This document shows, in pieces, positions 8,709 to 12,650 of a stretch of 38,390 nucleotides of DNA. The stretch is from a virus: positions 1 through 38,390 of IMG/VR virus record IMGVR_UViG_3300045999_005420; one strand, given 5' to 3'. The position numbers and the translations under genes are program-made. The first letter of the stretch is position 1; every line of letters starts with the position of its first letter. The notes below the pieces were generated by a model. That model searched no databases, had not been told where the DNA came from, and saw nothing but the letters and a program-made list of their open reading frames with translations.

Positions 8709-8865
8709 GCCGCCGGGCCATTGGACCCCAGAGGAAGACCGCATGGTCAAATCAGGCTCGCTTGCCAAGCGTTCTGTTGCAGACGTGGCAAAGACGCTTA
8801 ACCGGCTGGAAAAGAGCGTCATCATCCGAGCAAGGGTGATAGGCTTTCCGTTTCAAACATCATGA
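8701..8865 (+). CDS. Myb/SANT-like small DNA-binding protein (54 aa)
   Basis: ATG at 8701, overlapping the upstream stop by 8 bp, and ending with ATGA shared with the ParB-like gene. MRKPPGHWTPEEDRMVKSGS LAKRSVADVAKTLNRLEKSV with HWTPEEDRMV resembles the first helix of Myb/SANT domains, and ADVAKTLNRLEKSVIIRARV forms the helix-turn-helix. It follows the same design as its neighbour at 8322, so the two may be paralogous. Confidence 0.6.
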   Translation: MRKPPGHWTPEEDRMVKSGSLAKRSVADVAKTLNRLEKSVIIRARVIGFPFQTS

Positions 8866-9572
8866 CAAACACACAAGGGGAAAACGTGACACTTTCAAAC
8901 GATGCCGCAAAACATTTGACGGCGATCCTTGCGGAATATGAGGCGCTGGACCTTTCCGCAAAGGTCGATTGGCTTAACGCTATTCGCACCGAGCTTCACA
9001 ACGCTTCGCCATTTTCCACGGAACCTGTGGACCTTGTTCTTTGGGAACGGTCGGAGGGCGTGACCGCTAACGATTATAACCCAAACAGCGTTGCGCCGCC
9101 GGAAATGGAACTGCTGCGCCTTTCTATCATGGCGGACGGCTATACGCAGCCGGTCGTGACGCACTTGGACGATGACGGGCGCGTGGTTGTGGACGGCTTT
9201 CACCGGACGCGGGTTTGCAAGGAAAGCCCAGACGTTATGGCGCGGGTGAATGGCTATCTGCCCGTAGTCACAATCCGCGATCAGCAATCCGACCGCAGCG
9301 ACCGAATGGCGGCAACCATCCGACACAACCGAGCGCGCGGAAAGCATAAGGTTGACGCTATGAGCGATATTGTTTTGGAGCTTAAGCGCCGAAACTGGTC
9401 AGACGAAAAAATTGGGAAAAACCTTGGCATGGACCCCGATGAGGTTCTGCGTCTTTGCCAAATCTCAGGCCTTGCGGAAATGTTTGCCGACCGCGCTTTT
9501 AGCGAGGCGTGGGAACCTGGCACCATCAATGAAGACGATAACTTGACGGTCGAAATGGAGGAAATAGCGTGA
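8862..9572 (+). CDS. ParB/Srx-fold protein, IbrB-like
   Basis: 236 aa. ParB-like core: YNPNSVAPPEMELLRLSIMA then DGYTQPVV and VDGFHRTRV (110-118, the D-G-x-H-R box). It continues with MAATIRHNRARGKHKVDAMS and a helix-turn-helix NWSDEKIGKNLGMDPDEVLR (178-197). This arrangement is that of IbrB-type ParB-domain proteins, which occur next to IbrA-type PAPS-reductase proteins; the IbrA-like gene lies two genes downstream here. ParB/Srx folds bind or hydrolyse nucleotides (CTP, ATP) or cut DNA. The precise reaction of IbrB is not established. Confidence 0.8.
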   Translation: MTNTQGENVTLSNDAAKHLTAILAEYEALDLSAKVDWLNAIRTELHNASPFSTEPVDLVLWERSEGVTANDYNPNSVAPPEMELLRLSIMADGYTQPVVTHLDDDGRVVVDGFHRTRVCKESPDVMARVNGYLPVVTIRDQQSDRSDRMAATIRHNRARGKHKVDAMSDIVLELKRRNWSDEKIGKNLGMDPDEVLRLCQISGLAEMFADRAFSEAWEPGTINEDDNLTVEMEEIA

Positions 9573-9964
9573 GCCGCGTCTATCACCATCATGACAAACT
9601 AGAAGAATATCACTGCGGCTTGTGGCGCATCACAACTGGCGAAGAGCGAAAGAGTTATGTCGATAAAAGCTTAGAGCTTATGCGCGACACGCCACGCTTT
9701 CGCCGGGCAATGGAAGAAGTGATTGAGCAATGGCCGTTTGCCAGTGAACACAATCTCAGCGCGCAGAACATTAACCGTTTGGCGTGGCTTGGCCACGCTG
9801 GGTGTTGTTTAGCAGTTTCATCGCCAGAAGATTGCACACGTGCCGCATGGCATTGGTTGTCTAGGGCCGAACAAGACGCGGCGAACGCTGCCGCCGCCGA
9901 AGTCGTCGCGCTATGGGATGACACTACTCACCCGACGCTTTTTCCTATGGGGCCGAAATGCTGA
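9569..9964 (+). CDS. Hypothetical protein inside the ParB/PAPS-reductase cassette (131 aa)
   Basis: GTG at 9569 shares GTGA with the ParB-like stop, and the end overlaps the PAPS-reductase start by 7 bp. HHHDKLEEYHCGLWRITTGE, then a helical C-terminal part NRLAWLGHAGCCLAVSSPED and AAWHWLSRAEQDAANAAAAE. The Trp/Cys pattern (LAWLGHAGCC) resembles short helical C-terminal modules of phage proteins. No named family recognised. Position between the two cassette genes suggests a partner or specificity subunit. Confidence 0.6.
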   Translation: MSRVYHHHDKLEEYHCGLWRITTGEERKSYVDKSLELMRDTPRFRRAMEEVIEQWPFASEHNLSAQNINRLAWLGHAGCCLAVSSPEDCTRAAWHWLSRAEQDAANAAAAEVVALWDDTTHPTLFPMGPKC

Positions 9965-11202
9965 AAGAACCGATTGGCCTCAACGTATTGGAGGCGGCGC
10001 GTGAGCGCATTGCATGGACTTTTGACACCTTTCCGCGCGTCTATCTTTCGTTTTCGGCGGGAAAGGACAGCACGGTCATGCTTCACCTTGTGGCCGACGA
10101 AGCTCGGAAGCGAGACCGCAAGTTTGGCCTGCTCCTGATCGATTTGGAGGGGCAATACAAGCTTACTATCGACCACGCGCACCGTTGCGTTGAGATGTAT
10201 GCGGACCTGATCGACCTTCATTGGGTTTGTTTGCCTATCCACCTTCGCAATGCCGTTAGTGTCTATGAACCGTTTTGGAAATGCTGGGACGCGGAAGCAA
10301 AAGACGCTTGGATTAGGCCGATGCCAGATTGCGCTGTTAGCGACACCGCCGCCTATCCGTTCTTTTTTGACGGCATGGAGTTTGAGGAGTTCGTTGAGCT
10401 TTTTGGGGAGTGGTATGCCAACGGTGAAGAAACGGCGTGTTTTGTTGGCATTCGCACGGATGAAAGCCTGAACCGCTTTCGCACCATTGTCCAAAGCAAG
10501 AAGGTCACAAAGGACGGCAAGAGATACACGTCGCAAGTCACCGATCATGTTTTCAACGCCTATCCGATCTATGATTGGCATTCTGCGGACCTTTGGACCT
10601 ATCACGCGCAGAACCCGGACAAGCCGCACAACCGGCTTTATGACCTAATGCTTAAGGCGGGCGTTCCGCTTGGGCATATGCGGATTTGCCAGCCGTATGG
10701 AGACGACCAGCGGCGGGGATTGTGGTTGTTTCATCTGATTGAGCCGGAAACGTGGTCGCGTGTTGTGGCCCGTGTAAACGGCGCAAACGGCGGTGCTCTT
10801 TACGTTCAAGAGTGGGGCAACATTAACGGCTATCGTGGCATCACCAAGCCCGCTGGACACACTTGGAAATCGTTTGCCGACCTTCTCGTTATGTCTATGC
10901 CGCCAAAGACGCAGGAGCATTATCAAAACAAGATTGTGCTTTTTCAGCGGTGGTGGATGCAGCGAGGCTATTCGGACGGCATTCCCGACGAAAGCCCGCA
11001 TGAACTTGAAGCGGCTCGCCGCGCTCCGAGCTGGCGACGGGTTTGCAAAAGCCTCCTGCGAAACGACTATTGGGGCAAAGGAATGGGCTTTAGTCAGCAC
11101 AAGTCCGACGCTTACAAAAAGTATCTCGATCTTATGCGCCGCCGCAAAGATGCGTGGGGCGTCAAGGGTTTGCAAATGGACTTGTTAGATCAAACCGCAT
11201 GA
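9958..11202 (+). CDS. PAPS reductase-like/DUF3440 ATP-pyrophosphatase (IbrA-like)
   Basis: 414 aa. N-terminal PP-loop SFSAGKDST (31-39), with Ala in place of the usual second Gly of SGGKDS; then GLLLIDLEGQYKLTIDHAHR, GIRTDESLNRFRTI (164-177) and NAYPIYDWHSADLWTYH (200-216), the hallmark blocks of DUF3440 proteins. The family uses ATP to adenylate a substrate and transfer sulfur or reduce a sulfo group. The C-terminal third (TWKSFADLLVMSMPPKTQEH, WRRVCKSLLRNDYWGKGMGF) is specific to the IbrA type. Function in phages is unproven; a nucleic-acid or nucleotide modification is a reasonable inference. Confidence 0.85.
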   Translation: MLKEPIGLNVLEAARERIAWTFDTFPRVYLSFSAGKDSTVMLHLVADEARKRDRKFGLLLIDLEGQYKLTIDHAHRCVEMYADLIDLHWVCLPIHLRNAVSVYEPFWKCWDAEAKDAWIRPMPDCAVSDTAAYPFFFDGMEFEEFVELFGEWYANGEETACFVGIRTDESLNRFRTIVQSKKVTKDGKRYTSQVTDHVFNAYPIYDWHSADLWTYHAQNPDKPHNRLYDLMLKAGVPLGHMRICQPYGDDQRRGLWLFHLIEPETWSRVVARVNGANGGALYVQEWGNINGYRGITKPAGHTWKSFADLLVMSMPPKTQEHYQNKIVLFQRWWMQRGYSDGIPDESPHELEAARRAPSWRRVCKSLLRNDYWGKGMGFSQHKSDAYKKYLDLMRRRKDAWGVKGLQMDLLDQTA

Positions 11203-11863: not shown

Positions 11864-12168
11864 GCTATGCGGGAGGCTTCGCAAATAGCTGTCGAAACGC
11901 TCAACGGAGATTGAACGTTCAAAGCCATCGAACGATACGCGATCAAAAGGATGTTCATTGACCGCTAATGTTTCGATCACTATTGTCTCAACCGTGGATC
12001 TCGGTAGCGCCTCTGCCTTTGGTATGCGCCCGGGAGAACCGCTCTCCTCCATCATTCCCCACGTTTCTTGTATGGTCCGCGCTTGCCGGGACCCTTTTCT
12101 GCGCAGGATTGCGACCCGGAAAATCTACGGCTTGACGATCAGAATGTCTAGCGTAAGGTGCGCGGTGA

Positions 12169-12226
12169 AGGGGTCGCCGGATTGAACTACGGCGACCCCT
12201 CCTAAATCGGTTCTTGCCAACCGATT
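12169..12226. repeat. Two adjacent perfect inverted repeats
   Basis: First: AGGGGTCGCCG (12169-12179) with CGGCGACCCCT (12190-12200), an 11-bp perfect stem with a 10-base loop. Second: AATCGGTT (12205-12212) with AACCGATT (12219-12226), an 8-bp perfect stem with a 6-base loop. No T-run follows either on either strand. They could be RNA hairpins, protein-binding sites or single-strand-origin-like structures. They lie about 70 bp before the RNA candidate. Confidence 0.65.
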
Positions 12227-12292
12227 GCGTGACGCAGTTACTGTTATATCGTCACACATGACCGCTGGCAAGTTTGGTTTAGGCTCCTCAAC

Positions 12293-12544
12293 CTGGTCGG
12301 TTAACGGCAGCGGGGACGGTGCATGGCTACTGTGGGTCTGACCAAGCCAAGGCGAGTCCGAAAGGGTGAGCGCCGGTCAGCAGGGCGACGCAGCCTTGAA
12401 AGCAGCACCTAACCGAAAGGCCAGCGTCGGCACTTTCGGGTCTGTAAGCGCCGGTCGGCTCCATTGAGCTTGTCTAGCCCCAGACTGGAACGCCCCGAGT
12501 TGTTTTGGTTTTGGCCAAACGCTTGGGAGTGTTCCTATGTCTGG
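12293..12544 (+). ncRNA. Candidate structured RNA (about 250 nt, unassigned class)
   Basis: Nested helices found by eye. Helix A: 12293-12303 with 12410-12424 (CTGG and TCGGTTA paired around a 4-nt bulge). Helix B: GGTGC 12318-12322 with GCACC 12405-12409, directly stacked. Inside B are two adjoining hairpins: C, CTGACC/GGTCAG (12338-12343, 12375-12380) then GGCG/CGCC and a GAAA tetraloop at 12360-12363; and D, CAGGGC/GCCTTG (12381-12398). Hairpin E pairs 12426-12431 with 12450-12455. Hairpin F (12480-12544) has about 25 bp. Several pairs are G-U, which would be mismatches on the other strand, so the RNA is most likely rightward. It ends 107 bp before operon 2 and may be its leader or an independent RNA. 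I cannot assign a known class. Confidence 0.5.
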
Positions 12545-12569
12545 TCACACCAGTCTCACCATTGAGCTT
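12461..12569 (+). repeat. 11-bp direct repeats flanking hairpin F
   Basis: CCATTGAGCTT occurs at 12461-12471 and 12559-12569, bracketing hairpin F (12480-12544) almost symmetrically. This may be part of the RNA architecture or a footprint of insertion of the hairpin. Confidence 0.6.
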
Positions 12570-12650
12570 ATTAGATAGCTTACAAGCACTTAACGGAAAT
12601 CTGCTCTAAAATTTGGCTATCGCAAAATAGACGTTGACTAGGCCCATGCC

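What the first reader, a model, noticed from the sequence alone, without database searches (positions are those of the whole stretch)
12293..12544. Compact multi-helix RNA in a gene-free gap between the two rightward operons
Helix A (12293-12303/12410-12424) and helix B (12318-12322/12405-12409) stack directly, and inside B two hairpins (12338-12380 with a GAAA tetraloop, and 12381-12398) abut without spare bases. A third hairpin (12426-12455) and a 65-nt long hairpin (12480-12544) follow. Many pairs are G-U, which favours + strand transcription. I do not know a class with this architecture. It may be a leader controlling operon 2 or an independent phage RNA.
Basis: partly seen in the sequence, partly recalled or inferred. 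Interest (0 to 1): 0.78.

Follow-up and report, generated by a model that had tools for sequence, protein, structure and literature searches.

The report
Phage RNA carrying one word twice
A gap in this phage genome encodes a folded RNA that is a distant, larger relative of an Rfam family of unknown function found in many phages and in some transposons, and its members carry the same 6-9 letter "address word" twice, a feature we have not seen described and that makes its function testable.

Summary
There is a real structured RNA at window 12292-12570 (+ strand). A model built from nine relatives, with the window held out, finds it at E 9e-16. Its consensus fold keeps 93% of pairs in 12 divergent relatives, with 73 double-compensated cells against 24 in shuffles. 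The RNA extends about 25 nt further 3'.

It is a divergent, longer member of the superfamily of Rfam RF02932 ("Betaproteobacteria-1", function unknown; 20 bits against a 49.4 cut-off). New features:
- Every intact member examined closely carries a 5-9 nt word twice: R1 in a loop after GGCUCC (12463-12471) and R2 after the closing CACC (12561-12569). The word differs between members, but R1 matches R2 (7.1/8 against at most 4.3 in 10,000 permutations).
- Where R1 and R2 differ by transitions, R1 has the wobble-capable base (18 to 1).
- The class occurs in phage early regions.
- In Burkholderiaceae chromosomes, 7 of 27 RNA places listed lie within 5 kb of a Tn7-like TniQ gene.

The mechanism is not established. 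Most likely it is a mobile-element ncRNA whose two words bind one complementary nucleic acid.

The parts
12132..12159 (+). promoter-like CTTGACG..16 nt..TAAGGT upstream of the RNA
   Evidence: conserved in relatives L011 and partly L019; sequence reading only, not scored by the scan
12170..12199 (+). hairpin GGGGTCGCCG..CGGCGACCCC between the first operon and the RNA
   Evidence: conserved in L011 and L019
12292..12314 (+). P1 hairpin GGUCGG-UUA-ACGGCAGCGG, most conserved block
   Evidence: 97.9% of cells paired in 12 relatives; shared with RF02932
12324..12349 (+). P2 (12324-12328/12345-12349) around invariant ACUGUGGG (12329-12336)
   Evidence: invariant block; matches the second RF02932 hairpin; pairing by eye in relatives, permutation test not decisive
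12338..12380 (+). P3 (12338-12343/12375-12380), forming a pseudoknot with P2, enclosing P4 (12351-12354/12371-12374) and the GAAA loop
   Evidence: all 10 P3/P4 pairs of the consensus have double-sided compensatory changes
12381..12400 (+). variable hairpin
   Evidence: same position, different sequence in relatives
12413..12439 (+). P7 hairpin
   Evidence: 7 of 7 pairs with compensatory changes
12446..12462 (+). conserved AAGCGNCGG-N-GGCUCC box before R1
   Evidence: nearly invariant
12463..12471 (+). R1, first copy of the word AUUGAGCUU
12480..12559 (+). long 3' hairpin and CUCAC (12555-12559), which pairs with GUGGG 12332-12336
   Evidence: long-range helix 100% paired in 11 of 11 sequences with letters, 3 of 5 pairs invariant
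12561..12569 (+). R2, second copy of the word AUUGAGCUU, directly after CACC
   Evidence: homology with L011 ends just after it

Best explanation
SHOWN: window 12292-12570 encodes a + strand noncoding RNA of the RF02932 superfamily in a larger form (pseudoknotted P2/P3/P4 core, P7, a loop bearing R1, a 3' hairpin, then R2). Members show the same short word in the R1 loop and in the R2 tail. The word changes between relatives in both copies together. INFERRED: the RNA is a selfish or regulatory ncRNA of mobile elements (phage early regions, Tn7-like transposons). Its fold presents two copies of a short address that base-pair with one and the same complementary nucleic acid, which matches R2 exactly and R1 with wobble. 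By this pairing it regulates or targets that partner. The partner is not identified. (The identity part alone: about 0.95.)
For: Homology and fold. RF02932-type members: loop-loop pairing 113/113 paired at two free positions against at most 61% and 71% in shuffles; G-U preferred on the + strand at a third. R1=R2. New alphaproteobacterial members found by the 5' model alone (L293-L295) also carry it. Concerted change: L034 against L055, L266 against L239. Transition asymmetry 18:1 (31:0 at position 1). Context: primase, repressor and HNH genes upstream, replication genes downstream; TniQ/TniB next to chromosomal copies.
Against: No complement of the word is enriched near the RNA or in phage contigs, so the partner is unproven. 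The R1 word also partly pairs with its own upstream box (GCU/AGC, UUCC/GGAA), which could favour G in R1 and mimic the asymmetry. The repeats might be kept alike by slippage across the hairpin. In phages the RNA usually has no terminator behind it (2 of 101), so a cis role inside the transcript is possible. No transcription data.
Confidence: 0.4

Rival explanations
1. Cis-acting early-transcript element, for example processive antitermination like HK022 put or Bacillales EAR: the RNA folds behind RNA polymerase just as R2 fills the 9-bp RNA-DNA hybrid, and alters polymerase or mRNA fate downstream.
For: In about 40% of loci the RNA starts within about 20 nt of an upstream stop codon, in the early region, with no terminator after it; in L025 it follows a Cro-like gene; downstream genes are unrelated.
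Against: Chromosomal copies have their own TATACA(T)-type promoter and several read towards tniQ on the opposite strand, not into a cargo operon. Does not by itself require R1=R2.
Confidence: 0.25
2. Part of, or attachment site for, Tn7-like transposons: TniQ recognises the RNA or its gene, and R1/R2 take part in target choice.
For: 7 of 27 listed RNA places in RF02932-positive Burkholderiaceae genomes lie within about 5 kb of a TniQ match (G258, G260, G308, G309, G340, G357, G368); L330 shows a TnsB-like protein, TniB and TniQ and a TnsA-like upstream frame; sporadic, often multi-copy distribution.
Against: Phage copies, including the window, have no tni genes beside them; the side and orientation relative to tni differ (L330 against L331); transposon ends not located.
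Confidence: 0.15
3. Antisense sRNA with two identical seeds against an mRNA of host or phage.
For: Short words shown in a loop and a tail, with wobble allowed.
Against: Complement not enriched in phage loci (5 against 6 in control); words are diverse.
Confidence: 0.15
4. R1 and R2 are kept identical only by replication slippage or gene conversion and have no paired function.
For: Short direct repeats flanking a hairpin are prone to template switching (general knowledge); both copies change together in close relatives.
Against: Kept at exactly the same structural places across alpha- and betaproteobacterial elements, with directional differences.
Confidence: 0.05

Closest known systems
Rfam RF02932 Betaproteobacteria-1 RNA
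   Same: P1 block GGUCGG..ACGGCAGCGG, P2 around CUGUGGG, P3/P4 core; many phage and Burkholderiaceae copies score 70-110 bits; those copies also carry R1/R2 beyond the Rfam model
   Different: The window scores 20 bits and relative L031 36 bits, both below the 49.4-bit cut-off; it has an extra GAAA hairpin in P4, an extra variable hairpin and P7, and is about 280 nt instead of about 200
HK022 put RNAs / EAR (antitermination RNAs; from general knowledge)
   Same: structured RNA inside early or long operons
   Different: no sequence relation tested; duplicated variable word not known there; standalone chromosomal copies
IS110 bridge RNA, TnpB omega RNA, CAST guide RNA (from general knowledge)
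   Same: structured RNA of mobile elements with a variable, element-specific sequence
   Different: word repeated inside the RNA itself; no adjacent nuclease, recombinase or Cas gene recognised in phages; no target found

Membership tests
RF02932 Betaproteobacteria-1 | score above the curated gathering cut-off (49.4 bits) | tested here: not met
   20 bits, E 0.3; none at gathering; group-B relative L031 36 bits, E 0.0037
RF02932 Betaproteobacteria-1 | common ancestry with RF02932 (shared conserved blocks and fold) | tested here: met
   model of window-type RNAs finds RF02932-type loci at E 5e-8 to 5e-3, including loci fetched by an unrelated 3' pattern
window-type group (L005, L007, L008, L010, L022, L027, L031, L033, L082) | match of the held-out window to a covariance model of the group | tested here: met
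   65.8 bits, E 8.7e-16, one copy in the record
RF02932 superfamily as described here | matching words R1 and R2 after the box and after CACC | tested here: met
   AUUGAGCUU twice in the window; truncated chromosomal copies lack R2
Antitermination RNA (put-like) | makes RNA polymerase read through terminators in cis | not testable with these tools
   needs a reporter assay
RNA guide of a transposon or nuclease | adjacent effector gene and a matching DNA target | tested here: inconclusive
   TniQ/TniB next to chromosomal copies but no effector beside phage copies and no target found

The most novel reading that the evidence does not exclude
A Cas-independent guide-type RNA shared by phages and Tn7-like (TniQ) transposons: the R1 loop is a short programmable guide that pairs with the exact complement of R2, and the word is the element's own address.
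Probability: 0.1. Interest if true: 0.92.

Novelty: new variant of a known kind. Interest (0 to 1): 0.62.

Why it matters
A widespread, highly structured RNA of phages and transposons has been catalogued only as a 120-nt motif without a function. The part left out of that motif carries a duplicated, element-specific word that evolves in concert. That points to a base-pairing or recognition function, gives a direct mutational test (swap both words against one), and links the RNA to TniQ-type transposons.

Tried and rejected
- Energy of the fold alone: not significant.
- Rfam at gathering and tRNA search: nothing in the window.
- BLAST against phage and plasmid records with the window RNA: nothing convincing.
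- Complement of the word in cis (5' region, upstream, downstream, whole contigs): no consistent site.
- R2 as mere flanking target DNA of an inserted element: disfavoured because words change in both copies while both flanks stay similar (L266 against L239).
- Downstream terminator marking an sRNA end: absent in 99 of 101 loci.
- P2 permutation test in the window group: not discriminating.
- Literature search for RF02932 or Betaproteobacteria-1: no held paper.
- Search for repeated transposon ends around chromosomal copies: none found.

Full report
WHAT IS THERE. The gap between the two rightward gene groups holds no ORF of 60 aa or more and no Rfam match at gathering threshold. Folding energy alone is unremarkable (z -1.8). 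At a permissive threshold the only informative match was RF02932, Betaproteobacteria-1 RNA (20 bits, E 0.3). It covered blocks that looked conserved: GGUCGGUUAACGGCAGCGG and CUGUGGG.

HOMOLOGUES. Pattern scans on these blocks gave the window-type group in viral contigs (L005, L007, L008, L010, L011, L019, L022, L027, L031, L033) and one Hyphomicrobiales MAG contig, L082. They also gave many RF02932-type loci in phages and in Burkholderiaceae chromosomes. Those scanned pass RF02932 at 71-104 bits. A covariance model from nine window-type sequences, with the window, L011 and L019 held out, finds the window at 12292-12388 with E 8.7e-16, once in the record. It also finds most RF02932-type loci tested at E 5e-8 to 5e-3. 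So the two groups are one superfamily, and the window belongs to a longer, divergent branch.

STRUCTURE. On 12 window-type sequences the consensus fold has 92.8% of cells paired (shuffles 74.0%), 73 double-changed cells (24.1) and covariation score 0.502 (0.161 +/- 0.021); no shuffle of 500 reached any of these, and slid versions fall to 33-56% paired. This supports P1 (12292-12299/12305-12314), P3 with P4 (12338-12343/12375-12380 and 12351-12354/12371-12374), P7 (12413-12419/12433-12439) and a long-range helix 12332-12336/12555-12559, mostly invariant. P2 (12324-12328/12345-12349) would make P3 a pseudoknot; it follows the RF02932 structure, but my own permutation test of it was not decisive. 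In the RF02932-type branch a loop-to-downstream pairing outside the nested Rfam structure is 113/113 paired at two positions left free by the search pattern, against at most 61% and 71% in shuffles. At a third position 100 of 113 sequences are U-G, which fixes the strand as +.

THE REPEATED WORD. After the box GGCUCC the loop shows R1. After the final CACC comes R2, with the same word. The window has AUUGAGCUU at 12463-12471 and 12561-12569. Over 42 distinct R1/R2 pairs of the main type, 7.12 of 8 positions agree, against a mean of 3.38 and a maximum of 4.33 in 10,000 permutations. Branches with other boxes (GAUUCC/CUCAAACC, AACUCC/CACC, GCGAYG/GCUC) show the same rule by inspection. Three new alphaproteobacterial loci found only by the 5' model (L293, L294, L295) have it too. 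Close relatives change both copies together: L034 against L055, L266 against L239. Where R1 and R2 differ by a transition, R1 has G or U and R2 has A or C in 18 of 19 cases outside position 1, and 31 of 31 at position 1. That is what is expected if an exact complement of R2 also pairs with R1 by wobble. A caution: G in R1 may also help it pair with its own upstream box. Truncated chromosomal copies lack R2.

CONTEXT. Phage copies lie in the early region. Upstream neighbours include DNA primases, Cro-type repressors, HNH endonucleases and methyltransferases; downstream ones include replication initiation, ParB and Nin genes. In about 40% of loci the RNA starts within about 20 nt of an upstream stop codon. 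A terminator follows in 2 of 101 loci. A subset of freshwater phages has a long terminator-like hairpin directly before the RNA. In the window a conserved hairpin (12170-12199) and a promoter-like sequence precede it, and operon 2 has its own promoter-like site. In Burkholderiaceae chromosomes the RNA has its own conserved TATACA(T)-like promoter and is sporadic: 17 of 150 genomes, up to four copies. Seven of the 27 RNA places listed there lie within about 5 kb of a TniQ match (G258, G260, G308, G309, G340, G357, G368). With about 50 TniQ matches in about 145 Mb, about 0.1 such places would be expected; this is my estimate, not a tool output. L330 shows a TnsB-like protein (weak matches only), TniB, TniQ and, by reading, a TnsA-like frame upstream. 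Neighbours include defence-like genes.

HOW IT MAY WORK. Shown: RNA identity, fold, two matching words, mobile-element context. Inferred: both words meet one complementary strand. I favour a mobile-element ncRNA with a duplicated pairing address (0.4), over a cis-acting early-transcript element (0.25), a transposon-linked targeting role (0.15) and a double-seed antisense RNA (0.15). No complement of the word was found in phage sequences, so the partner may be the complement of R2 itself (template strand or antisense transcript), a short-seed RNA, or a host nucleic acid.

NOVELTY. The family exists in Rfam without a function, and its 120-nt model stops before the repeat-bearing half. New here are the longer window-type branch, the R1/R2 rule, the extra loop pairing and the link to TniQ transposons. 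No held paper mentions the family. That the repeat is undescribed rests on those searches and on my own knowledge.

Noticed in passing
window 8862-9572 and 9958-11202: ParB-like protein followed by a PAPS-reductase/DUF3440 protein; from memory this pair resembles IbrB/IbrA.
   Followed up: no
L329, L330, L331, L332, L324 (Burkholderiaceae chromosomes): Tn7-like tnsB/tniB/tniQ genes next to RF02932-type RNAs, with defence-like neighbours; no CRISPR-Cas gene was looked for systematically.
   Followed up: partly
L311, L312, L316, L320-L323, right after the RNA: Cluster of hairpins with repeated AAGGAUNUGC / GCAUAUGC motifs, perhaps transposon-end sites or a further RNA.
   Followed up: no
upstream of the RNA in L175, L177, L193, L225, L230, L266, L285 and others: About 90-nt hairpin ending in T6-T7 directly before the RNA; in L230 and L193 a 5' segment could pair with the hairpin's inner part, like an attenuator.
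   Followed up: partly
L287 3209-3784: Six phage tRNA genes between a primase gene and the RNA.
   Followed up: no
L204 1656-1745: C4 antisense RNA (RF01695) in a contig that also carries RF02932.
   Followed up: no
L030, L036, L040, L041, L047, L050: Third branch of the RNA (E about 9e-12 with the window-type model for L030 and L036) with a different 3' half in which no GGCUCC/CACC repeat was recognised.
   Followed up: partly
Burkholderiaceae copies L071, L074, L104 and others: R1 and R2 are each followed by a local complement, so the words may be sequestered in chromosomal copies.
   Followed up: no
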